NCBI RefSeq assembly: GCF_011305415.1
Contig: NZ_JAANOQ010000003.1
Coordinates: forward strand, 62,001 to 126,000
Length of the DNA stretch: 64,000 bases
Source of the DNA: Flavobacterium bernardetii
GTDB taxonomy: Bacteria; Bacteroidota; Bacteroidia; Flavobacteriales; Flavobacteriaceae
Reading direction: 5' to 3'
The notes below the pieces were generated by a model, which was given only the letters and a program-made list of their open reading frames with translations, did not search any database and was not told where the DNA came from. A program made the position numbers and the translations under genes. Of this stretch, positions 1,692 to 16,973 are shown one piece after another. Within the stretch, counting starts at the first letter, position 1; every line of letters begins with the position of its first letter.

Positions 1692-1718
1692 ATGCCTATA
1701 TGTGAATTAGAAAAATAT

Positions 1719-2264
1719 ACTTGCAACAGCGAGTTTCATACTTGTAACGTAGAGTTTTACACTTGTAATAGGTAGTTTTAACTTTGTAACGAGGAGTTAT
1801 AACTTTGTAACGAACAGTTTCATACTTGTAATGAGGAGTTTTATACTTGTAACGAGGAGTTTTAACTTTGGAGTAATGAGTTTTACAAATGCAGTTGCTA
1901 ATTTCGGAAATGCGGTTGCTAAAAGCGGGAATGCGTTCGTAAGTTTCGGAAATGAAGTTGCTAAAACTGGAAATAACTATGAAAGAAGTGGAAATGACTA
2001 TGAAAGAAATGGAAATGACTATGAAAGAAATGGAAATGCCGATGCAAGAAATGGAAATGTCGATGTTAATTTAGGAAATACCGATGCAAGAAGTGGAAAT
2101 ACAGATGCAAGAAATGGAAATGTAGATGTTAATTTAGGAAATACTGATGCAAGAAGTGGAAATACCGATGCAAGAAATGGAAATGATTATGAAAGAAATG
2201 GAAATGACTATGAAAGAAATGGAAATGAAACTGTTAAAAGTGGAAATGTAGTTTCAAGAAGTTC
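1719..2264. repeat. 21-bp tandem array, 26 units without indels
   Basis: Reading from 1719, the sequence repeats exactly every 21 bp for 26 units. The first eight units resemble acttgtaacgaggagtttta and contain stop codons in the forward frames. The following 18 resemble aaatgactatgaaagaaatg and are open in one frame, encoding heptads such as GNDYERN and GNTDARN. Units diverge in sequence but never in length. 21 bp equals two turns of B-DNA. It is not a CRISPR array, because there are no unique spacers. It separates the carboxylase terminator from a convergent gene. Confidence 0.9.
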
Positions 2265-2858: not shown

Positions 2859-2901
2859 TTTTATTATTTTTAGTTTGTTATATTGTTTGGTTATGAACGA
2901 A

Positions 2902-2929
2902 CGCGAAAGGATTCGCGCACGAGCGGGGG
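2902..2929 (+). repeat. REP-like hairpin with GCGGGGG tail
   Basis: Stem cgcgaa / ttcgcg has an agga loop and is followed by the tail cacgagcggggg. It has the same architecture as the elements at 6238, 9772 and 9886 (hairpin plus a tail ending AGCGGGG), although the stem sequence is unrelated to theirs. Confidence 0.7.
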
Positions 2930-2947
2930 AATCTGTGCTTTTGGATT

Positions 2948-3415
2948 TTACTCCCAATTCGTTATGTTTTTTGTCCAAGCTTCAATTATGATGGGTTCAA
3001 TAACAAGCATGACTAACTTTATAGGGAATTTATTGTTTTCAGATTGTGGATTAGTCATAATTAGATAGTTATTCACCGTATCATAATAGTACATCATAGT
3101 ATTTACGGTTGCAGTTTTCGAAACTTTAAAATTTGGAATTTCGCTAGCTATTAAGTTTTTAAATGAAGCTTCATCCATAAAATTCTTATTTAAAGTTCCA
3201 ACTGCGATTGCAATACTGTCTTTAGTATATGTAATCATTTTTTTCTCGTCTTTTGAAACTATTAAATCTTCCACTAAAAAACTTCCTTCGGCTCTTAAAC
3301 CTTTAGAAGTTGCTTCGGGATATAATTTATGAATTTCACTGTATGATTTTCTTAATTGCGCAAGAGTCAATTGAGCAAATAGAAAGGCAACGAGTATTAA
3401 AATGCTTTTTTTCAT
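2948..3415 (-). CDS. Secreted protein of unknown function (155 residues)
   Basis: The N-terminus MKKSILILVAFLFAQLTLAQ is a clear signal peptide with cleavage expected after the AQ-type end, so the mature product of about 135 residues is probably periplasmic or outer-membrane associated. The rest has no motif I recognise. It includes EDLIVSKDEKKMITYTKDS and a C-terminal hydrophobic stretch IKLVMLVIEPIIIEAW. The ATG at 3415 was preferred to a start 12 residues upstream because it opens the signal peptide. It follows the small membrane-protein gene at 3421-3687 by 5 bp, so the two are probably co-transcribed. Confidence 0.7.
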   Translation of the reverse strand: MKKSILILVAFLFAQLTLAQLRKSYSEIHKLYPEATSKGLRAEGSFLVEDLIVSKDEKKMITYTKDSIAIAVGTLNKNFMDEASFKNLIASEIPNFKVSKTATVNTMMYYYDTVNNYLIMTNPQSENNKFPIKLVMLVIEPIIIEAWTKNITNWE

Positions 3416-3420
3416 TTTTA

Positions 3421-3687
3421 TTAATTTAAACTTCTTATTATTAAAACACATAAAGTTATTATTAATGTCGTCGCTAAAATTTTAATACTTCTGCTTTTAT
3501 TTTTTGTTAGATAGTTGGCTAATAAACCCAAACCAGCTCCAAGTCCGCCAAATACTCCTGAATATAAAATTTGCATTCCACTTTCATTTGTTAGTTCTTT
3601 TCCGGCATTCATTAAAATAATGCATGGTAAAACGATCATTACTAAAGTCCAAATTTGGTTTTCGTCAAGTTTATTTTTATCTGTCAT
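3421..3687 (-). CDS. Small membrane protein (88 residues)
   Basis: Three hydrophobic segments are visible: IWTLVMIVLPCIILMNAG, a glycine-rich stretch around GVFGGLGAGLGLLANYL, and IKILATTLIITLCVLII. The protein should sit in the inner membrane with short loops. No family is recognised. It is the first gene of a two-gene minus-strand unit with the secreted protein that follows 5 bp later. A REP-like hairpin lies just upstream at 3715-3742. Confidence 0.65.
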   Translation of the reverse strand: MTDKNKLDENQIWTLVMIVLPCIILMNAGKELTNESGMQILYSGVFGGLGAGLGLLANYLTKNKSRSIKILATTLIITLCVLIIRSLN

Positions 3688-3714
3688 TTTGTATTGTTAC
3701 TCTTTAGAATTATC

Positions 3715-3742
3715 GCACGGATTGCAAATCCGTGCTATCGGG
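3715..3742 (+). repeat. REP-like hairpin (gcacggatt stem)
   Basis: Arms gcacggatt and aatccgtgc flank a 3-nt loop, and the tail tatcggg follows. From memory this is a common Flavobacteria repeat whose full form ends TAGCGGGG. It lies between two minus-strand genes and abuts the stop codon at 3745. Confidence 0.75.
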
Positions 3743-3744
3743 TT

Positions 3745-5436
3745 TTATTTTTCAACTTTTAAATCTACTATCGATGTCTTCTCAGCATTTAATTTTGCTA
3801 TTGCTTTTATTACTGTTGTTTCGTTATTGTTTTCATTATTAAAAGCAAAGTAAAGAAATAAAGAATTGGTTTTTTCAACATACGAAGTAGCGCCACCTGT
3901 CATTACTTTTTTTGAATTATCACTTCTTAATTCTATAAGTTCGTTTGCTGGTTCTGAGCTTATTTTAATTTTGTCTGAAATGTTTTCAGTTTTTCCACTT
4001 AAATAATTAGCAATTTCATTTGAAATAAATGCGATTTCTTCTTTTGAATTGATTTTAAAATATCTGTTTTTATTAAATACATTGGTATCATTTTTAGACC
4101 AAACATCATTCAATCTTGAAATTTGTAAAATCTTGTATGATGGATCAATTATAATTCTATTAACGTTTTCAATATTTAATTTTTGTATTTTTTGTTCTTT
4201 TGAAAAAGATAAAGTTTTTAAAGTTTTTTCATTGTTTGAGTCGGTTATAGCGATTTCAACGGTATAGCTTTTATTGGAATTTGATGTTATACAAACTTCA
4301 TTTGAAGCGCAATCTGAAATGAAAAAATCAGGAAAGAATTCATCTGTTGCTATCGCTTCAATTCCTTTTGAATCAAAGAATATATTTATTTCGTCAAGAC
4401 TTGTTTTTCTTCTTTTTTCTTTGTTTTTATACAAGTCTGCAAGTTGATTAATAAAATCCGGATTGCTTAATTGTCTTGTATGAAAATATATAGGCAATAA
4501 ACCATACGATAATGACTTTGTGGATTTCGCGTCTAAATCTTTTTTCCTTAAGTCATTTAATGATTTTTTTCCTTCTAATAAATATAATCTTTCATTTATT
4601 GATTTGTCAAGTTGGCTTTCTCCGTATTGATTTATAACATATTGCATAGAAAGAAATTCAGCAATTCCTTCGGTTAGAGGTCTTTCCTTAATAATTATTC
4701 CGTCTAGACCAAACCAAATATGAGCAATTTCGTGAGATATAGTATTCTCTATGTTTTTTCCCTTAACAACGTCAGAATTGTAAACAATTAAATTTTCAGT
4801 AGTTTCACTTGGTTCATTGTTTGGAGCAAACACAATCTTTGGTTTTCTTTTTTCGCCAAAGTATTTTGAAAAATAATTAAAAGCGTTATTCATTCCGATA
4901 TTGGCTTTTTTCATTTCCTCTAAAAACTCTTTTTCCTTTTCTAGATAATACACTTTAAAACCATTTTCCTCAAAGAAATTAAAATTCCCTGCTACAATTT
5001 TTGGAGATGTTATATAGGTTTCTTTTAAATCATCTTTTGATGGAAAAATAACAGGATATTTTTTTGAAGAAATATCGAGATTGAATTTTTTAAAATCTAA
5101 GAAATTATTTTTTTTTAAACCTAAATATTTCAAATCAGAAATGAAAAAATCAGTATTTAGTTTTGATGTGTTAGTAATAACTTCAAAATTGATGTTGTTT
5201 ACATTATATATTTCATATTCTTTCGAAGAACTTAACTCTCTTAAAAAGACGATTTCTTTTTGATTCGGGGAATAGCTTTTAGGAAGTATATAAATGGCTT
5301 TATTGTTCTCTTTTAAAATCTGATTTACTTGTAGGTTTGAGTTTTCATCGATTATAACTTTTGCCGTTATTTCTTCTTGTGCAGATACGAATGTGATGTT
5401 TAAAAACAGTGTAAAAAATAAAAATTTTCTTTTCAT
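3745..5436 (-). CDS. Secreted M1-like (gluzincin) metallopeptidase
   Basis: The protein has 563 residues and a signal peptide (MKRKFLFFTLFLNITFVSAQ). A zinc-binding HEIAH sits at residues 235-239 and a downstream LTEG supplies a candidate third ligand at E256, the order seen in M1 aminopeptidases. The second His and this Glu are separated by 16 residues instead of the usual 18 of M1 enzymes. A second Glu at 260 in IAEF offers an alternative. The N-terminal 200 residues are beta-rich and lack a readable GAMEN exopeptidase motif, so exopeptidase activity is not assured. The mature enzyme is probably exported to the periplasm or surface. The large intervals to both neighbours suggest a single-gene unit. 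Confidence 0.75.
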   Translation of the reverse strand: MKRKFLFFTLFLNITFVSAQEEITAKVIIDENSNLQVNQILKENNKAIYILPKSYSPNQKEIVFLRELSSSKEYEIYNVNNINFEVITNTSKLNTDFFISDLKYLGLKKNNFLDFKKFNLDISSKKYPVIFPSKDDLKETYITSPKIVAGNFNFFEENGFKVYYLEKEKEFLEEMKKANIGMNNAFNYFSKYFGEKRKPKIVFAPNNEPSETTENLIVYNSDVVKGKNIENTISHEIAHIWFGLDGIIIKERPLTEGIAEFLSMQYVINQYGESQLDKSINERLYLLEGKKSLNDLRKKDLDAKSTKSLSYGLLPIYFHTRQLSNPDFINQLADLYKNKEKRRKTSLDEINIFFDSKGIEAIATDEFFPDFFISDCASNEVCITSNSNKSYTVEIAITDSNNEKTLKTLSFSKEQKIQKLNIENVNRIIIDPSYKILQISRLNDVWSKNDTNVFNKNRYFKINSKEEIAFISNEIANYLSGKTENISDKIKISSEPANELIELRSDNSKKVMTGGATSYVEKTNSLFLYFAFNNENNNETTVIKAIAKLNAEKTSIVDLKVEK

Positions 5437-5477
5437 AAATATATTTTATTAAGTCTCCAAACATACAAAAAATCCCA

Positions 5478-5505
5478 CAAAAAAAGACCGCTACAAGCAG
5501 TCTTT
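5478..5505 (-). terminator. Rho-independent terminator downstream of the 5571-6215 gene
   Basis: Read on the minus strand: stem aagactgct / agcggtctt with a 3-nt loop, then a T-rich run and gtgggattttt. The same terminator, with a slightly different loop, appears at 12048-12075. Confidence 0.8.
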
Positions 5506-5570
5506 CTATATCAGTTATTAACAAATATACTATGTTGGTGCTAACGGACTTTAATGTATTTGTACATTAG

Positions 5571-6215
5571 CTATTGTTTTTCAAAAGATTTTTCGAAATT
5601 ATAATTTAATATCATTCCAACACTTTCTTTTGTGTAATTTATTGACGCGCTGAATAGACTATTATTGATATAAGCATTATATAATTCTTGAGTTAGTAAA
5701 TGTCTGTCATCTTTTGCACTATATATTTTAACTTCTATTTTGTAAAAGTTATGTTTCCCTAATTGTAGGTCAGATTTAGTTAATTCATATTTTAATTCTT
5801 TAATGTTTGAATACGTATCACGTAATAATTTTTCGGTAAATAATTTATGTTCTTCTAATGTAAATTTCTTCTTTCCTACTAAAGTTTCTAAACTACTTTT
5901 GAAATAATTAAATCTATCAAGCTGAAATCCAATTAATTGTGGAGGGTGTCCATTAATAATTATTCCATTTGGAACTTCTTTTTTTATAGCCTCGAGGCCC
6001 TTTTTTTCTAATTCTTCAATTCGTTCTTTCTTGATTATTTGATAACCTTCAGGAATTGCAATTTCCCATTCAATTAGATCACAAATATAAACGCCATTTT
6101 CTATTTTTCCGTTTTCTGAACTTTCAGATTTAGATTCTTTAACTTCTTCTTTCTTTTCTTGAGAGAAAAACAAGTTTGATGAAATTAATAATAGTATGGT
6201 AACTAAGTTTTTCAT
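5571..6215 (-). CDS. Secreted protein of unknown function (214 residues)
   Basis: A signal peptide (MKNLVTILLLISSNLFFSQ) is followed by a charged linker rich in K, E and S, then a domain containing GVYICDLIEWEIAIPEGYQI and a long mixed alpha/beta region. The IPEGYQ pattern and overall size recall small periplasmic proteins that share a fold with the neighbour at 6278-6805, but I recognise no named family. It ends 65 bp before a terminator at 5505 and starts 62 bp from the end of that neighbour, with a REP-like hairpin between them. Confidence 0.65.
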   Translation of the reverse strand: MKNLVTILLLISSNLFFSQEKKEEVKESKSESSENGKIENGVYICDLIEWEIAIPEGYQIIKKERIEELEKKGLEAIKKEVPNGIIINGHPPQLIGFQLDRFNYFKSSLETLVGKKKFTLEEHKLFTEKLLRDTYSNIKELKYELTKSDLQLGKHNFYKIEVKIYSAKDDRHLLTQELYNAYINNSLFSASINYTKESVGMILNYNFEKSFEKQ

Positions 6216-6237
6216 TTTTTTAGATTTATTGATAACT

Positions 6238-6268
6238 CAAAGTCGGTAGACTTTACGCAGCGGGAGGG
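6238..6268 (+). repeat. REP-like hairpin (caaagtc family)
   Basis: Arms aaagtc / gacttt flank ggta, followed by tail acgcagcgggaggg. It is the same element as those around the RAYT gene at 9057-9080 and 9772-9799, here about 3 kb away and between two co-oriented genes. Confidence 0.75.
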
Positions 6269-6277
6269 TATTTATTA

Positions 6278-6805
6278 TTAGTCCTTCAGACTGTAAAGTA
6301 TTTTTTGAAAGTCAGCTTTGAATTTGTCTTTATCTTCTGCTGCTGCCCAAGACATAACTTTGTAATAACTAGTCTTTGTTTCTACAATTCCTACTAAATA
6401 ATAAATTTCTGTTTTAGCTTCCTTGTCATAGAATGTTACATCAGACTCAATAAAATTTATTTCTCCTTTTTTTTGAAATTGAGGTTTTGAAACTTTTCTC
6501 TTTTCTTCGTCTTTTAAAAAGTCTTTTATGAAATCATCATAAAACTCATTTATTGAAGAAAATTTCATATCGACTAAATCTAAATCTTCTTTGGTGTCAA
6601 AAATTATAAAACCGTAAACTTCTTTTACAATGTTTTGGTACTCTATTGCTGACGAACCATTAATTCCGATAGTTTTACTCATGTATTCTGGAAGGCCAAT
6701 TTCAAAAGTATGTCCAGCCTTATACTTTTTTAGTTCAGTTTGGGCAAATGATGTCATGGTCATTAAAACCAAAATTGTTGTGAAAATTGCAATTGTCTTT
6801 TTCAT
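6278..6805 (-). CDS. Secreted protein of unknown function (175 residues)
   Basis: It starts with a signal peptide MKKTIAIFTTILVLMTMTSFAQ. The mature part begins TELKKYKAGHTFEIGLPEYM and contains short beta strands and amphipathic helices, ending FQKILYSLKD. The pattern 'FEIGLPEYM' followed by a C-terminal helix resembles small PsbP/DUF-type periplasmic proteins, but I cannot name the family. The neighbour 5571-6215 has a comparable layout (signal peptide, 'IPEGY', C-terminal helix), which suggests related roles. Confidence 0.65.
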   Translation of the reverse strand: MKKTIAIFTTILVLMTMTSFAQTELKKYKAGHTFEIGLPEYMSKTIGINGSSAIEYQNIVKEVYGFIIFDTKEDLDLVDMKFSSINEFYDDFIKDFLKDEEKRKVSKPQFQKKGEINFIESDVTFYDKEAKTEIYYLVGIVETKTSYYKVMSWAAAEDKDKFKADFQKILYSLKD

Positions 6806-6881
6806 TTTTTATGTTTTATTTTCTGTTATTGATTATTAGATAGTTGTCGTATCTTTTGTTAAACTTACGTAATAGCGTTCC

Positions 6882-6904
6882 TCGGATTGGCGCAATTGCG
6901 GGGA
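6882..6904 (+). repeat. Degenerate REP-like element
   Basis: The short inverted repeat attggcgcaat is followed by tgcgggg, the tail seen in the other REP-like elements. It abuts the end of the PH-domain gene at 6908. The stem is weak, so the assignment is tentative. Confidence 0.35.
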
Positions 6905-6907
6905 TTA

Positions 6908-7288
6908 TTATTTCAAAACGTGATGCGCCAAAACCTTTTGCACATCGTACACATTTACTGATTTGTTAAACTGTTTTACAATGCTTGGTTGCGCTTCGCT
7001 AGAAATCCAAATTTTTAATTCTGCTTCTAAGTCGAATGTTCCTGCGGTTTCTATACTGAAACGTGTGATGCTTTTATAGGTTATTGTTTTGTATTCGGTT
7101 TTACTTCCAGTAAGACCTTGCACATCGACTAAAATTAGACGTTTGTTTGTGAAAATAAAGGTGTCACGAATTAACTTGAAACCTAATTCTATTTCTTCTG
7201 AATCGGTTAGTAATTGCCCGTATTTTTTTAATAAGTCTTCTTGGGTTACGGCTCCTGCGTTACCTAATAATGATGAAAATATTCCCAT
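6908..7288 (-). CDS. PH domain-containing protein, copy 2
   Basis: This 126-residue protein matches the bacterial PH-domain family bPH_1 (PF08000 as I remember it): MGIFSSLLGNAG start, FKLIRDTFIFTNKRLILVD core, KTEYKTITYKSITRFSIETAG, AELKIWIS, and a C-terminal helix VYDVQKVLAHHVL. It has no signal peptide. The protein sequence is identical to copy 1 at 8607-8987, although the genes differ at about 19 synonymous positions. The role is unknown; eukaryotic PH domains bind phosphoinositides or proteins, but that cannot be carried over. It lies 17 bp downstream of the esterase gene in the same direction. Confidence 0.9.
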   Translation of the reverse strand: MGIFSSLLGNAGAVTQEDLLKKYGQLLTDSEEIELGFKLIRDTFIFTNKRLILVDVQGLTGSKTEYKTITYKSITRFSIETAGTFDLEAELKIWISSEAQPSIVKQFNKSVNVYDVQKVLAHHVLK

Positions 7289-7305
7289 GTTTTTATGTTT
7301 TTGGT

Positions 7306-8112
7306 TTAATTATTCAACGACCAAATTAGAGCTTTTTCTTTAGTTGCTCTAAAGATAGTACTATGGTCTTCTTTTTTTTCTGGTGAGTAATTCCAATTTA
7401 GATTTTGAATGTTCTTTGTCGTTAAAATTTTAGCCAATTTATTAGTCGATTTAAAAATGCTTTTTTCACTTGAACCAGCGAACCAAAATGTTTTTTTGTT
7501 ATTTGAAAAATGGTTGAGGTGTTCGTTGGCATTTTTGACTAAATGCTTATTGTTCCACCAAAGAGAAGGATCGAAAGCGATATAGAAATCGAACATTTCA
7601 GGTTGTAGTAATAAGGTTTCGGTTACGAAAAGTCCAGCTAAGGATTCTCCGATGATGCCTTTTTTGGCTGTCGTTTTATATTTTGAATTGATTTCTTGGA
7701 AAAGTTCCTCTTGTATAAATGCTCTAAATGCTGCTGAACCACCAACAACTGGTGCAATTTCTTTATCTTCTTTCACTACCGTTTCGCCCGTTAAATCTCT
7801 TCTGCGTTGTGTGTTTTCAATGCCGACTAAAATGATAGGTTGTATCTTTTTAAGTTGTATTAGTTTAGCTAATGTATTGGCAATGTGTGGAAAATCTTCT
7901 TGAATGCCGCCATCTGCCATGTATAAAACAGGTAATGAATCGGTACTTTTACTATATTCTGAAGGTAGCCAAACATTAATAACTCGAGTTTCATTTACTT
8001 TTTTTGATGAGATGGTAAACGTTTCATATTTTGGAATGGAATCGTTTTGTTGGGCAATTGTATTTGTAATACTAAGTAAGCACGATAAGATACAGAAATA
8101 AATAGATTTCAT
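7306..8112 (-). CDS. Secreted alpha/beta-hydrolase esterase (esterase D / PF00756-like)
   Basis: This 268-residue protein has a signal peptide (MKSIYFCILSCLLSITNTIAQ). Esterase-D-type motifs follow: VINVWLPSEYS, LPVLYMADGG, a nucleophile elbow GESLAG with its serine near residue 155, AFDPSLWWNN, and a C-terminal DHSTIF histidine. The Ser-Asp/Glu-His triad is therefore plausible. Relatives hydrolyse small acyl esters, including siderophore and carbohydrate esters; the substrate here is unknown. It sits between two identical PH-domain genes and after a small membrane-protein gene, all in one direction with 17-27 bp gaps. Confidence 0.85.
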   Translation of the reverse strand: MKSIYFCILSCLLSITNTIAQQNDSIPKYETFTISSKKVNETRVINVWLPSEYSKSTDSLPVLYMADGGIQEDFPHIANTLAKLIQLKKIQPIILVGIENTQRRRDLTGETVVKEDKEIAPVVGGSAAFRAFIQEELFQEINSKYKTTAKKGIIGESLAGLFVTETLLLQPEMFDFYIAFDPSLWWNNKHLVKNANEHLNHFSNNKKTFWFAGSSEKSIFKSTNKLAKILTTKNIQNLNWNYSPEKKEDHSTIFRATKEKALIWSLNN

Positions 8113-8139
8113 TTTAAATTAGTTTAAGTTTTGATTTGC

Positions 8140-8589
8140 TTACCAAGCTTTTTTGATAGCCTCTAATTTGTAATAAAAAGGAAGAAGAAGTATAAGTTCT
8201 AATCTAAGTGTTACACCAGCATTTTCAACAAAAATAGGAATAACAACCATTGAAATAAAACAAATAATAATTCCTGCAATAGCGTCAATCTTTCCTAATT
8301 GGATGGCATTGTCTTTTTCAAACCATAAAGAATAGGCAGTGAAAGCTTTAAATGACATTAAAGCAATAATTAAACTACCTAATAGACTTACAGGTTTGTT
8401 TGTTTCAAAACCATATAAAGATAAATCGGCTGTTCCTCCAAAAATTCCAATAAGAAAGCAAGCAATTCCTGCTACTCCCATAATCATAAATAACCAACAA
8501 AATACTTTTATCCATACGGGTAATAAGGCTCTTCTGTTGACTGGTTTCTTTTCAAATTGATCAAATTGGCTGTTTGTGATTTCTTCCAT
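8140..8589 (-). CDS. Small integral membrane protein (149 residues)
   Basis: After a cytoplasmic N-terminus of about 25 residues (EEITNSQFDQFEKKPVNRR), three to four hydrophobic segments are visible: VWIKVFCWLFMIMGVAGIACF, LLGSLIIALMSFKAFTAY, and AIAGIIICFISMVVIPIFV, plus a less certain one near the end. No family is recognised. It lies 17 bp downstream of PH-domain copy 1 and 27 bp upstream of the esterase, so it is part of the same probable operon. Confidence 0.65.
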   Translation of the reverse strand: MEEITNSQFDQFEKKPVNRRALLPVWIKVFCWLFMIMGVAGIACFLIGIFGGTADLSLYGFETNKPVSLLGSLIIALMSFKAFTAYSLWFEKDNAIQLGKIDAIAGIIICFISMVVIPIFVENAGVTLRLELILLLPFYYKLEAIKKAW

Positions 8590-8606
8590 TTTAAACGAGT
8601 ATTATT

Positions 8607-8987
8607 TTATTTCAAAACATGATGCGCCAAAACCTTTTGCACATCGTACACATTTACCGATTTGTTAAATTGTTTTACAATACTTGGTTGCGCTTCGCTA
8701 GAAATCCAAATTTTCAATTCTGCTTCTAAGTCGAATGTTCCTGCAGTTTCTATGCTGAAACGTGTGATGCTTTTATAAGTTATTGTTTTATATTCCGTTT
8801 TACTTCCAGTAAGTCCTTGAACATCAACTAAAATTAGACGTTTGTTGGTAAAAATAAAGGTATCACGAATTAACTTAAAACCTAATTCTATTTCTTCTGA
8901 ATCGGTTAATAATTGCCCGTATTTTTTTAATAAGTCTTCTTGGGTCACGGCTCCTGCGTTACCTAATAATGATGAAAATATTCCCAT
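8607..8987 (-). CDS. PH domain-containing protein, copy 1
   Basis: The encoded protein is identical over all 126 residues to copy 2 at 6908-7288, with the same bPH_1-type features. The nucleotide sequences differ at about 19 third-codon or silent positions, so this is a true duplication and not an assembly duplicate. It is the first gene of the run PH - membrane protein - esterase - PH. No signal peptide is present, so the protein should be cytoplasmic, perhaps at the inner face of the membrane. Confidence 0.9.
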   Translation of the reverse strand: MGIFSSLLGNAGAVTQEDLLKKYGQLLTDSEEIELGFKLIRDTFIFTNKRLILVDVQGLTGSKTEYKTITYKSITRFSIETAGTFDLEAELKIWISSEAQPSIVKQFNKSVNVYDVQKVLAHHVLK

Positions 8988-9036
8988 GTTTTTTTGTTTT
9001 TATGTTGTTTGATTTTGGTTTATGAGTGTACTTTAA

Positions 9037-9083
9037 CGCTGCGAAAAGTCTCTAACGCTGCGCAAAGTCTCCCGACTTTGAGC
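9037..9083 (-). repeat. REP-like hairpins left of the RAYT gene (one full, one partial)
   Basis: On the minus strand, 9057-9080 reads caaagtc-ggga-gactttg followed by cgcagcg. A partial copy (cgctgcg plus aaaagtc) lies at 9037-9050. Both point away from the RAYT gene and mirror the element at 9772-9799 on its other side. Confidence 0.8.
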
Positions 9084-9085
9084 TA

Positions 9086-9685
9086 CTATTGACTTATATA
9101 TTTATCAAAAGAAGATTGTTTTAATACATCAACTTTTGGGATTTCTACTATTTCTACTTGAATGATTCCTGTTCCATTCATGTAGTTACTTGCACTAGAA
9201 TAAAGATAATCATCCATTTTTATTACAATTCCAGCACGTACTGGATTCATATGTATATAATCTAATTTTGACCACAAAAATTGCTCTGTGAATATCTCTT
9301 CAGCGTGATTTCCGTATTGCCAAAATTGATAATTTTTATTTCTCGAATGAGTTTCCGTTGCTAATTTAAATCTTTCTAACATCCATTCTCTTCTGCTTTC
9401 AGGTTCAGATTGTATTTTTTCTAAAATTGTTTTAGCAGTAAATTTTTTAAAGTCTCTTAATAAATCTGAAAGTTTTCCATCGTTAGATTGAATTATCATA
9501 TGAATATGATTACTCATAATAACATAGCCATATAAAATCATTCCTTTGTTTTTTATACAATAATCAAAACATTCTATAATAGAATCTCTATAACTTTTTC
9601 TTGAAAATACATCTATCCAATCTACAACTGTAGCAGTAATAAAATGTGCTTTTTCTTGTTCTTTTATTGTGTATCCTTCTTTCAT
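9086..9685 (-). CDS. REP-associated tyrosine transposase (RAYT, Y1_Tnp family)
   Basis: The protein has 199 residues with the HUH motif in YVIMSNHIHMIIQ near residue 60 and the RAYT-type signature DYIHMNPVRAGIV near 145, which carries the candidate catalytic tyrosine. An N-terminal block AHFITATVVDWIDVFSR is also typical. RAYTs nick and join single-stranded DNA at REP hairpins and are thought to spread them. The gene is flanked by inverted hairpins of the caaagtc family, the arrangement expected of a RAYT with its cognate REPs. It appears full length and without frameshift, so it may be active. Confidence 0.93.
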   Translation of the reverse strand: MKEGYTIKEQEKAHFITATVVDWIDVFSRKSYRDSIIECFDYCIKNKGMILYGYVIMSNHIHMIIQSNDGKLSDLLRDFKKFTAKTILEKIQSEPESRREWMLERFKLATETHSRNKNYQFWQYGNHAEEIFTEQFLWSKLDYIHMNPVRAGIVIKMDDYLYSSASNYMNGTGIIQVEIVEIPKVDVLKQSSFDKYISQ

Positions 9686-9722
9686 TATCTTAAATATTAA
9701 TTTTTCGTGGCTTATAGTTGAT

Positions 9723-9749
9723 GCTTTGCAAAGTCTCCTGTCTTTGAAC
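9723..9749 (-). repeat. Degenerate REP-like hairpin upstream of the RAYT gene
   Basis: The sequence gctttgcaaagtctcctg then tctttgaac is a one-mismatch copy of the caaagtc hairpin in inverse orientation to the perfect one 22 bp further right. Confidence 0.6.
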
Positions 9750-9771
9750 TTGTTTTTTATTTGTTTTAGCT

Positions 9772-9799
9772 CAAAGTCAGGAGACTTTGCGCAGCGGGG
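9772..9799 (+). repeat. REP-like hairpin right of the RAYT gene
   Basis: Perfect arms caaagtc / gactttg flank agga and are followed by cgcagcgggg. This is the best-preserved member of the caaagtc family in the window. Confidence 0.85.
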
Positions 9800-9823
9800 T
9801 GTTTTTTTTATTCCTTACCTTTT

Positions 9824-9915
9824 CGCTAGCGCGAGCTTCTAGCTCGTAATCGTTCTAAATAATTAAAAATATATGCTTTGTGTGCACGAGCTGGAAGCTC
9901 GCACTAGCGTGGGGG
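9824..9915. repeat. Pair of inverted REP-like hairpins (gagctt stem)
   Basis: A left copy (9824-9848, cgctagcgcgagcttctagc) and an inverted right copy (9885-9915, ending actagcgtggggg) face each other across about 36 bp. Each has a gagct / agctc stem. The right copy ends one base before the stop codon of the DUF262 gene at 9917. The tail again ends AGCGnGGGG. Confidence 0.8.
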
Positions 9916-9916
9916 T

Positions 9917-11902
9917 TTATTTTTTCTTTTCTTTTTTTACAAAAATTTTATCAGGAGTTGTTTCTTTTACAAATGTTAAGTTTAAAATTTCTTTTCTCTT
10001 GTAATCAGAAACAAAATTTAGTTCCCATCTTTTTTCCATAAATTTCAAAAGTTTTATACCTCTGTCTAAAATGTTTTGAGGTGTCCAATCAGTTAAACCT
10101 GAAATTTCATTTTCAGAATAAGAACCATATTTATAACCAACATAATTTTCACCATTATCAATTTTATCTATAAAGCACTTGTTCTGTAAACTTGAATTTT
10201 TAGGTTTAGATAACGGCAATAAGTTACCCAATGAATTATTCAATGTTTTACGTTCTCTTAATGTATATGAATTAAAGTTTTTTGTCCAACAATCCGTTCT
10301 GGGTGTCTGTGGGTAAATATGTTCAATTGTAATAAAATCATCTTTTTCATTTCTGTATTCAAACCAATCTATTTTATTTTTCTTAGTTTTAGATGTCCCT
10401 TTTATGCTTAATTCATACTCGTAAAGAAAATACCTTATTCCGTTCCAACCATAAAATCCATCACTTTTAAAATTATCAACTAAACGGTCAATAAAATCAG
10501 GTTTTTCTATGATTTCTTTTATTTTTAAATCTAAATCTTTGATTAAATCGTTTAGTGACATATCACCTTTTTGAATTTTAATTGCTACCATAGAAAAATC
10601 TATATAATTCACGTAATATCTGTATGATATAAGTAAATATAAAAAGGCTAATTTTTCTAATTTTTCTAAAAGTTTAATTTTTAAATCAGCCTTAGGCTTC
10701 TTTAAGTAGATCGCTAAAATTAATGCTGAGAAATTAGAAAGGCCAATTCTATTTAGACTGTCTAATAGAACTTTTTCATTATCTGTATAATCATTTGAAA
10801 GCGTTGGGTTGAAAAAATAAAACCAATTAACAACTGAATTTTGTAAACTTTCAACATACTTTTTAATTGAATTTATTGTCAGATTATTTTCTGTGATTAT
10901 GTTTTTTAATGTAAACTTACTTTCTAATAAAAAATCTTCTAAATTGTCTCTTAAGTGATGACTAGGTCTTCTTAATCTATTTGCTTGAATTTCATCGTAA
11001 GGAAATATTTCGTGTCCGAAATAAATTGAACAATGATTATTTAAAAAGAAATCATCATTTAAAGGTTTATTTTTATTTAAACCTAAATAATGATAAATAC
11101 CTCTCCATCCATCATTTATTATCTTTCTTAATTTATTTCTTTCGGAATCATCAGCATTAAATTTGGTAGATAAGTAAATTAGTCTGTTCTTTAAAAGTTC
11201 TAAATTTGATAACGGTTTTCCTCTATTATTCATTGTTTCAAATGCAATAAAAACATCAATATCACTTGAAATTGTATAGATATTAAATAATAGGTTTTGT
11301 GTTACTTTTGTAAAAATTACTTCACGTTCCTCTTTAGTAAGCTCCTTTAGTTTATTTACAAAAAACTCTTTTGCATTTTCTAAATTATGTGTGTAGATAG
11401 TTATTTCATTCTTATATCCGCTAGTTGAAGTTTCATTAAAAATTTTAGTTTTTAAGAATTCGTATGACGGATTGTCTTTTTCATATCCAAAAATATATGA
11501 TCTAGAAATACCATTATCCTTTGAATCAAAAATAAATCTTTTTTTTATTTCTTCAACAGTTGTGTAATTTAGAACTTCATCTTTTGAAATTACTTCAGTT
11601 AATGATTGAATCAAAATAATTGTAGTTGTTAGTCTTTGCTGTCCATCTACAACATAATAAGGTTCAAAGTTCTTTGATTTTATAATCCAATTGTCATCTG
11701 CCCAATTTTCATATGTTTTTTTGGGAACACCTTCTAAAGTCAAAACACCAACATAATGATTTTTATCCTCTTCTAAAAGCATAATATCAGACCAAAAGTC
11801 TTTCAGTTGTTTTTCAGTCCAAGCATATCCTCTTTGATAATCAGGAATACGGAATATTTTTTCTGTAAATATTTTTGATATTGATTGAAGTTGATTGTCC
11901 AT
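9917..11902 (-). CDS. GmrSD-like protein: DUF262 plus DUF1524 (HNH)
   Basis: The protein has 661 residues. The N-terminal DUF262 (GmrS-type NTPase) region shows FRIPDYQRGYAW at residues 17-28, VVDGQQRLTT at 85-93 and FETMNNRGKPLSNLELLKN at 221-239. The C-terminal DUF1524 (GmrD-type, HNH nuclease fold) shows IEHIYPQTP at 526-534 and LGNLLPLSKPKNSSLQNK at 558-575. Known relatives are type IV restriction enzymes that cut modified (glucosylated hydroxymethyl-cytosine) DNA, BrxU and SspE. The single-chain order and the intact DGQQR and His residues suggest an active defence protein. Its target is unknown. It stands alone: no methylase or BREX gene is adjacent. It is cytoplasmic. Confidence 0.9.
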   Translation of the reverse strand: MDNQLQSISKIFTEKIFRIPDYQRGYAWTEKQLKDFWSDIMLLEEDKNHYVGVLTLEGVPKKTYENWADDNWIIKSKNFEPYYVVDGQQRLTTTIILIQSLTEVISKDEVLNYTTVEEIKKRFIFDSKDNGISRSYIFGYEKDNPSYEFLKTKIFNETSTSGYKNEITIYTHNLENAKEFFVNKLKELTKEEREVIFTKVTQNLLFNIYTISSDIDVFIAFETMNNRGKPLSNLELLKNRLIYLSTKFNADDSERNKLRKIINDGWRGIYHYLGLNKNKPLNDDFFLNNHCSIYFGHEIFPYDEIQANRLRRPSHHLRDNLEDFLLESKFTLKNIITENNLTINSIKKYVESLQNSVVNWFYFFNPTLSNDYTDNEKVLLDSLNRIGLSNFSALILAIYLKKPKADLKIKLLEKLEKLAFLYLLISYRYYVNYIDFSMVAIKIQKGDMSLNDLIKDLDLKIKEIIEKPDFIDRLVDNFKSDGFYGWNGIRYFLYEYELSIKGTSKTKKNKIDWFEYRNEKDDFITIEHIYPQTPRTDCWTKNFNSYTLRERKTLNNSLGNLLPLSKPKNSSLQNKCFIDKIDNGENYVGYKYGSYSENEISGLTDWTPQNILDRGIKLLKFMEKRWELNFVSDYKRKEILNLTFVKETTPDKIFVKKEKKK

Positions 11903-16955: not shown

Positions 16956-16973
16956 GACAAGTCGCGACTTGTC
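16956..16973. repeat. 18-bp perfect palindrome gacaagtcg/cgacttgtc
   Basis: The palindrome lies 25 bp before the GlmU-like start codon. From memory, gacaagtcgcgacttgtc is a common dispersed repeat in Flavobacteria. An operator role cannot be excluded because of its position. Confidence 0.7.

What the first reader, a model, noticed from the sequence alone, without database searches (positions are those of the whole stretch)
2902..9915. REP-like hairpins with variable stems and a shared tail, next to a RAYT gene
At least six elements (2902, 3715, 6238, 9057, 9772, 9885) have a hairpin followed by a tail close to nnnAGCGGGG, but the stem sequences fall into four unrelated types (cgcgaa, gcacggatt, caaagtc, gagct). 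Only the caaagtc type flanks the RAYT at 9086-9685 in inverted orientation. This suggests the transposase recognises the tail and a stem structure, not the stem sequence, or that several RAYTs of the genome share one tail.
Basis: partly seen in the sequence, partly recalled or inferred. Interest (0 to 1): 0.6.

Follow-up and report, generated by a model that had tools for sequence, protein, structure and literature searches.

The report
Several REP families, one shared frame
The odd hairpins beside this gene are small repeats that probably moved as mobile DNA; each stem type belongs to its own branch of one family of transposase-like enzymes, and only one of those branches was found in this genome.

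Summary
The six hairpins are real, but the tail is looser than claimed: AGCGGGG is exact in 2 of 6, and 3715 ends in TATCGGG. The gene is a RAYT (REP-associated tyrosine transposase). In 150 genomes of the genus, 88 related RAYTs fall into five clades, and each clade is flanked by its own stem: CRAAGTC (the window's), CGGATT, CGAGCK, CTCGWT, CRCGAA. So the four stem types of the window are cognate repeats of four RAYT clades; only the first clade was found in this genome, and the other three types are low-copy here. All families share a frame: 2-bp basal clamp, conserved A.C (or T.C) mismatch, 6-7 bp stem, 3-4 nt loop, and a 3' tail near CGC-TA(G/T)CG, mostly pointing away from the gene. Stems drift within a clade with pairing and frame kept. 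Presence of the cognate RAYT goes with more copies clearly for two families (CGGATT, CGAGCK), weakly for two. Many genomes carry the repeats without the cognate RAYT. Bacteroidetes RAYTs with 'atypical' hairpins were reported in 2018; the shared frame and the stem-clade match are what I add, though that paper's supplementary motif table was not readable. Binding, cleavage and mobility are inferred, not shown.

The parts
9086..9685 (-). RAYT gene, 199 aa, clade A
   Evidence: NCBIfam NF047646 101.4 bits, cut-off 80; Pfam Y1_Tnp 29.8 bits, cut-off 23; HuH N59-H60-x-H62 and Y143-I-H-x-N-P invariant in 28 aligned sequences
9053..9084 (-). CAAAGTC-type REP downstream of the RAYT, tail outward (GCT-CAAAGTC-GGGA-GACTTTG-CGCAGCG)
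   Evidence: DNA fold z -3.0
9034..9071 (.). 19-bp unit, two copies: tail plus half stem of the CAAAGTC element duplicated
   Evidence: 94% matches
9720..9748 (-). decayed CAAAGTC-type copy upstream of the RAYT (stem 9730-9745)
9769..9799 (+). CAAAGTC-type REP upstream of the RAYT, tail outward, exact AGCGGGG
   Evidence: DNA fold z -3.9
9816..9850 (-). CGAGCT-type REP, tail CGCTAGCG, one half of a tail-out pair (stem 9832-9846)
   Evidence: fold alone not significant, z -0.8
9882..9912 (+). CGAGCT-type REP, tail CACTAGCGTGGGGG, other half of the pair (stem 9887-9901)
   Evidence: fold alone not significant, z -1.1
2898..2929 (+). CGCGAA-type REP, tail CACGAGCGGGGG (stem 2902-2917)
   Evidence: fold z -2.3
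3715..3742 (+). CGGATT-type REP, fully paired variant (A.C mismatch replaced by A-T), tail TATCGGG
   Evidence: fold z -4.4
6236..6264 (+). AAAGTC variant of the CAAAGTC type, tail ACGCAGCGGG
   Evidence: fold z -1.9

Best explanation
The window holds REPs (short palindromic, probably non-autonomous mobile elements) of four families around one RAYT gene. Each family is the cognate repeat of a different clade of one RAYT group that is spread through the genus. The window's RAYT (clade A) owns the CAAAGTC family. The CGGATT, CGAGCT and CGCGAA copies are low-copy members of families whose RAYTs sit in other genomes of the genus and were not found here. All families share a frame: basal 2-bp clamp, A.C or T.C mismatch, 6-7 bp stem, 3-4 nt loop, conserved tail. 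Inferred mechanism: the RAYT binds the folded single strand, uses mismatch, loop, head and tail to choose the strand and place the cut, and reads part of the stem as a clade-specific check. Shown: the frame, the stem-clade match, stem drift with pairing kept, tail-out orientation, copy numbers. Inferred: binding, cleavage, transposition, and that the B, C and D copies here are leftovers rather than repeats served by another enzyme.
For: Tree of 88 RAYTs: labels need 13 changes against 55.4 shuffled; C, C2 and D labels each form one side of a branch (support 99, 100, 99). Stem beside RAYT matches its clade in 159 of 161 assignable distinct hits. Frame: 177 hits against 2.8 shuffled and 1 in gene bodies; A.C at -1/+1 in 85 and T.C in 9 of 104 distinct elements, -2/+2 paired in 98, -3/+3 in 88. 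Tail columns up to 2.3 bits over all clades against a far-flank mean of 0.03. Tail outward in 144 of 163. Off-locus copies higher with the cognate RAYT: t = 4.6 (B), 3.0 (C) after genome size. The same elements flank clade-A RAYTs in named genomes: 53 of 80 loci.
Against: Copy number rises only weakly with the cognate RAYT for A (t 1.7) and D (t 1.1). 33, 29, 28 and 24 genomes hold at least 3 copies of A, B, C and D without that clade's RAYT among the loci fetched, against 16, 20, 13 and 5 with it. The CGAGCT pair sits beside a clade-A RAYT. 27 of 80 named-genome loci show no element by the descriptor. No empty site was found, so mobility is not shown. Several RAYTs carry stops or are fragments.
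Confidence: 0.82

Rival explanations
1. One promiscuous RAYT: the clade-A enzyme reads only the shared frame and tail and serves all four stem types in this genome.
For: The frame and the outline of the tail are shared. E. coli TnpA-REP tolerates swapped upper stems and acts on REPs of another species (PMC8266576, section 13 read). The genome carries B, C and D copies without those RAYTs, and G123 carries 28 B and 14 A copies with no match to this RAYT group.
Against: Stem family follows RAYT clade, and stems within a clade are about as conserved as the first tail positions. In the linear model, clade-A presence does not raise B, C or D copies (t -1.3, 0.1, 0.5).
Confidence: 0.15
2. The repeats are no longer mobile and are kept as host features (for example RNA 3' ends or protein-binding sites).
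For: Low copy number (at most 40 perfect stems per genome); the copies at 2902, 3715 and 6238 lie between genes on the same strand; RAYTs are described as domesticated (PMC8266576, section 29 read).
Against: RAYT matches are patchy in the genus (80 of 150 genomes) with many fragments, and the tail side lacks the T-run of an intrinsic terminator (sequence).
Confidence: 0.15
3. Unrelated chance hairpins.
For: The CGAGCT copies fold no better than shuffles, and AGCGGGG is not enriched.
Against: Blind descriptor enrichment about 60-fold over shuffles in RAYT flanks and clade-wide conservation of head, loop and tail.
Confidence: 0.02

Closest known systems
TnpA-Y1 subclass 2.6 (group 5 of Bertels) RAYTs of Bacteroidetes, PMC6006769 (passages read; supplementary motif table not available)
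   Same: Phylum, 'atypical' hairpins beside the gene with copies elsewhere, NHxH and WQ motifs and a HuH-Y spacing near 82 for the window gene
   Different: The paper gives the Y motif as YIH[QN]NP and says no GT[AG]G; the window gene has YIHMNP, and clades B, C and C2 carry GTGG or GTAG just before the clamp and mostly an SHxH motif. Clade C2 has YIHYNP, a motif that the paper lists for subclasses 2.2 and 2.8. The clade-specific stems and the shared mismatch frame are not in the passages I read.
E. coli TnpA-REP and REP (group 2), PDB 4er8; PMC8266576 (abstract, sections 13, 17, 28, 29 and passages read)
   Same: Best fold match of the model; imperfect hairpin in which an unpaired site is required for activity
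   Different: E. coli REPs have a GTAG head and a mid-stem AA/GC bulge; here a single A.C or T.C mismatch lies near the base, and clades A and D lack the head. Sequence similarity to 4er8 is not significant (E 0.86).
Stenotrophomonas and Pseudomonas RAYT-REP sets, PMC2817692 (passages read)
   Same: Several REP classes, each with its own RAYT; RAYT and REP coevolve; copies follow RAYT presence
   Different: That paper gives 37 to 427 perfect copies per genome for the Stenotrophomonas repeats; here at most 40 by my patterns, and repeats without a cognate RAYT are common
GTAG and CGTC palindromic repeats, PMC3733652 (passages read)
   Same: Short hairpins with a conserved tag at one end, several families per genome
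   Different: The GTAG phyla listed there do not include Bacteroidetes, and the CGTC repeats found in Bacteroidetes had no RAYT association

Membership tests
RAYT / TnpA-REP | Y1 HuH nuclease with REP-associated transposase model over cut-off | tested here: met
   NF047646 101.4 bits against 80; PF01797 over cut-off; HuH and Tyr invariant in 28 sequences
RAYT / TnpA-REP | Gene flanked by inverted hairpin repeats | tested here: met
   9063-9080 (-) and 9772-9789 (+), tails outward; 144 of 163 outward in relatives
RAYT / TnpA-REP | Fold of E. coli TnpA-REP | tested here: inconclusive
   4er8 is the only Foldseek match with E at most 0.001 (3.1e-4, TM 0.51/0.60), but the model has mean pLDDT 61.5
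RAYT / TnpA-REP | Strand-specific cleavage of the single-stranded REP | not testable with these tools
   bench assay needed
Subclass 2.6 (group 5) | NH[LIV]H, WQ, YIH[QN]NP, HuH-Y spacing near 82, Bacteroidetes | tested here: inconclusive
   Window gene: NHIH, WQ, spacing 81 met; Y motif YIHMNP differs at one letter. The paper's own profile was not run
REP | Conserved GT[AG]G head 5' of the hairpin | tested here: inconclusive
   Present in the consensus of B, C (GTGG) and C2 (GTAG), absent in A (window) and D
REP | High copy number, usually over 100 per genome | tested here: not met
   G000: 5, 6, 2 and 3 perfect stems of A, B, C and D; maximum in 150 genomes 34, 40, 37 and 21. Decayed copies are not counted. 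So 'REP-like' is the safer word
IS200/IS605 insertion sequence | IS200 transposase model over cut-off | tested here: not met
   NF033573 23.4 bits against 55

The most novel reading that the evidence does not exclude
In this RAYT group the hairpin is modular: a fixed frame (clamp, A.C mismatch, loop side, tail) marks the strand and the cut, and an interchangeable stem acts as a clade-specific key. The A.C mismatch reads as a G.T wobble on the opposite strand, so the near-palindrome is asymmetric only there, in the loop and in the flanks; this could be how the enzyme picks the strand in clades A and D, which lack a GT[AG]G head.
Probability: 0.45. Interest if true: 0.55.

Novelty: new member of a known kind. 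Interest (0 to 1): 0.4.

Why it matters
It turns a puzzling mix of hairpins into a testable set of five nuclease-hairpin pairs with one frame and different stems. RAYT specificity was studied at the bench for groups 2 and 3 (PMC8266576); this Bacteroidetes group offers natural stem swaps and stem drift that can separate reading of shape from reading of sequence. It also shows repeats of several families in genomes where no cognate RAYT was detected, which bears on how long such repeats outlast their enzyme.

Tried and rejected
Tail as an expanded repeat by itself: AGCGGGG 15 sites against 27 reversed, 2 of the 15 at the end of what looks like tRNA genes: rejected. The genome's other RAYT-like genes as owners of the B, C or D stems: L003 and L005 are flanked by CCTACAAGGTTT and GGACAGGTCGCGACCTGTCC hairpins: rejected. 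One search reports two matches to the window RAYT in this genome but lists only one, among the five PF01797 loci only the IS200-like L002 matches besides the gene itself (22.8 bits). RAYTs of another group as owners of the B stems in G123: three of its four RAYT-like genes were read and carry other hairpins. AlphaFold model weak (mean pLDDT 61.5), used only as support. phmmer against solved structures: 4er8 at E 0.86, not significant. Rfam was not searched. Held library: 'RAYT' with 'Flavobacterium' 0 papers, 'RAYTs' with 'Bacteroidetes' 2; some searches gave listings in which I saw no title or abstract opening on these repeats. A table passage of PMC12306157 lists two Flavobacterium genomes with large REP-related numbers; its column heads were not seen, so it may not agree with my low counts.

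Limits: patterns find perfect stems only, and CTCGWT was not counted genome-wide. RAYT presence per genome uses the 90 loci fetched from a longer, capped list; L053-L057 and L076 were placed in clades by list position, L095, L098 and L122 left out. Of 98 RAYT pieces, 88 entered the tree (under 130 bits and L043_2 dropped). The tree is the quick method, SH-aLRT only, with a warning that long branches meet. No phylogenetic correction in the copy-number tests. Stems were required to be perfect, and one search also requires clamp and mismatch, so pairing inside the stem and +1 = C there are not results; clamp and mismatch are tested, on elements whose stems I had chosen. L063 and L043 gave no shared inverted repeat.

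Full report
What is there. The window lies in a 3.39 Mb genome of 37 contigs, probably Flavobacterium (an inference: the best RAYT relatives in named genomes are mostly Flavobacterium). The six hairpins are present, and two more were missed: a decayed CAAAGTC copy at 9730-9745 (-) and a CGAGCT copy at 9832-9846 (-). The tail is exact AGCGGGG in two of the six and TATCGGG at 3715.

The gene. 9086-9685 (-) encodes a 199-aa RAYT: NCBIfam REP-associated tyrosine transposase, 101.4 bits with cut-off 80, and Pfam Y1_Tnp. HuH and Tyr motifs are invariant in 28 aligned sequences, 27 of them relatives. A low-confidence model (mean pLDDT 61.5) has E. coli TnpA-REP bound to a REP (4er8) as its only Foldseek match with E at most 0.001; by sequence the match is not significant. 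The genome has five PF01797 hits: two that I call IS200-like by length and score, this RAYT, and two other RAYT-like genes with unrelated flanking hairpins. Only the window gene passes the NCBIfam cut-off.

Relatives. Of 150 genomes of the genus, 80 match the window RAYT. I read the flanks of 90 loci. The CRAAGTC, CGGATT, CGAGCK and CRCGAA stems each flank a different set of RAYTs, and a fifth set has CTCGWT. A tree of 88 RAYTs has five deep clades of 24 (A), 29 (B), 17 (C), 10 (C2) and 8 (D) rows. The C, C2 and D labels are each one side of a branch. The A and B labels are broken only inside their own clades, by 10 unlabelled rows and 3 rows with other stems. All labels together need 13 changes against 55.4 when shuffled.

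The shared frame. 163 elements were oriented by loop sequence alone, so the tail is an independent readout. Consensus: A GGTA[CGAAGTC-RGGA-GACTTCG]CACAGCG; B GTGGGCA[CGGATT-GCA-AATCCG]CGCTATCGG; C GTGGGCA[CGAGCG-GGA-CGCTCG]CGCTAGCGGGGG; C2 GTAGGTA[CTCGAT-GCA-ATCGAG]CACCAG; D AACCA[CGCGAA-AGGA-TTCGCG]CGGnAGCGGGG. Over all clades the 3' columns reach 2.3 bits against a far-flank mean of 0.03; within clades they reach 2.3 to 2.6 against 0.10 to 0.20, and 0.49 (maximum 1.9) in C2, where the loci are close kin. C2 fits the tail least. Tails face away from the gene in 144 of 163. Next to the stem there is A.C in 85 and T.C in 9 of 104 distinct elements, a real pair in 7; the clamp is paired at -2/+2 in 98 and at -3/+3 in 88, with at most 60 in controls slid by one or two bases. 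On the complementary strand A.C reads G.T, a wobble pair. A descriptor of clamp, mismatch, stem length and loop length finds 177 hits in 81,870 bases of flanks, 2.8 in shuffles and 1 in 44,411 bases of gene bodies. In named genomes from Flavobacterium to Chryseobacterium, 53 of 80 clade-A loci show such an element.

Is the stem read? Of 170 distinct hits, 159 match the clade of the neighbouring RAYT, 2 do not and 9 were unassigned; with the nine main stems only, 126 match, 1 does not and 43 are unassigned. So the stem is not free across clades. Within a clade it drifts with pairing kept: seven stems beside clade-B RAYTs; L073, L075, L081 and L108 keep the GGCA, GCA and CGC surroundings with stems CAGTTT or CAGAAT. 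Stem positions within a clade are about as conserved as the first tail positions, which argues that part of the stem is read.

Copy number. In 150 genomes the perfect-stem patterns give A 383, B 456, C 324 and D 246 sites against 37, 4, 12 and 114 for reversed controls (sums). Off-locus copies are higher with the cognate RAYT: Mann-Whitney p 0.004 (A), 5e-6 (B), 9e-4 (C), 0.07 (D); with genome size and the other clades in a linear model, t is 1.7, 4.6, 3.0 and 1.1. A copies also rise with clade B (p 0.007) and clade C (0.036), C copies with clade A (0.033), and D copies with clade C (0.004) before that correction, so the link is not exclusive. Against a strict link, 33, 29, 28 and 24 genomes have at least three copies without that clade's RAYT, against 16, 20, 13 and 5 with it. 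G123 has 28 B and 14 A copies and no listed match to this RAYT group. The window's genome is the same kind of case: 6 B, 2 C and 3 D copies and no clade B, C or D RAYT found. The simplest view is that repeats outlive the enzyme; service by another enzyme is not excluded.

Mechanism, inferred. E. coli TnpA-REP needs an unpaired bulge but tolerates swapped upper stems; the Stenotrophomonas enzyme needs one loop base; GTAG is proposed to act like the guide of IS200/IS605 (PMC8266576, sections 13, 17, 28 read). By analogy the mismatch and loop here would mark the strand, head and tail would place the cut, and part of the stem would be a clade-specific check. None of this was tested.

Known or new. 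PMC6006769 (passages read) reports Bacteroidetes RAYTs of subclass 2.6 flanked by atypical hairpins with copies elsewhere, without GT[AG]G. That agrees with clades A and D; B, C and C2 carry GTGG or GTAG and mostly an SHxH motif, so whether they belong to that subclass is open. The frame and the stem-clade match are not in the passages that I read. I file this as new members of a known kind.

Noticed in passing
L005 (G000:C1:105208-108453), about 1401-1424: A GGACAGGTCGCGACCTGTCC hairpin lies in frame inside the RAYT-like gene that is flanked by the same hairpins; in-frame REPs inside such genes are described for subclass 2.4 in PMC6006769.
   Followed up: partly
window 16956-16973: A GACAAGTCGCGACTTGTC hairpin that resembles the repeats of the L005 RAYT-like gene, not the four families studied here.
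   Followed up: no
window 6908-7288 and 8607-8987: Two copies of a bacterial PH-domain gene: proteins identical, DNA 362 of 381 identical, so duplicated fairly recently or kept alike.
   Followed up: partly
window 9917-11902: GmrSD-type restriction endonuclease gene (Pfam GmrSD_N and GmrSD_C) directly beside the RAYT and its repeats.
   Followed up: no
window 1716-2228: Degenerate 21-bp tandem array (63-bp higher period) that reads as an open frame of NGN-type repeats.
   Followed up: no
L048, L049, L051 (clade-A RAYT flanks in relatives): Flanks packed with several different hairpins (AAGGTC, TTCAGTC, CAAAGTC, TCCCGAA) around one RAYT: stem variety inside one locus.
   Followed up: partly
L071 (clade-B RAYT flank): A TCCCGA hairpin appears to sit inside the loop of a CAG...CTG element with the usual GGCA and CGCTATC surroundings, a nested hairpin.
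   Followed up: no
L218, L230, L240 (G123): RAYT-like genes of another group with GTAG-headed hairpins of different stems in a genome rich in orphan CGGATT repeats.
   Followed up: partly
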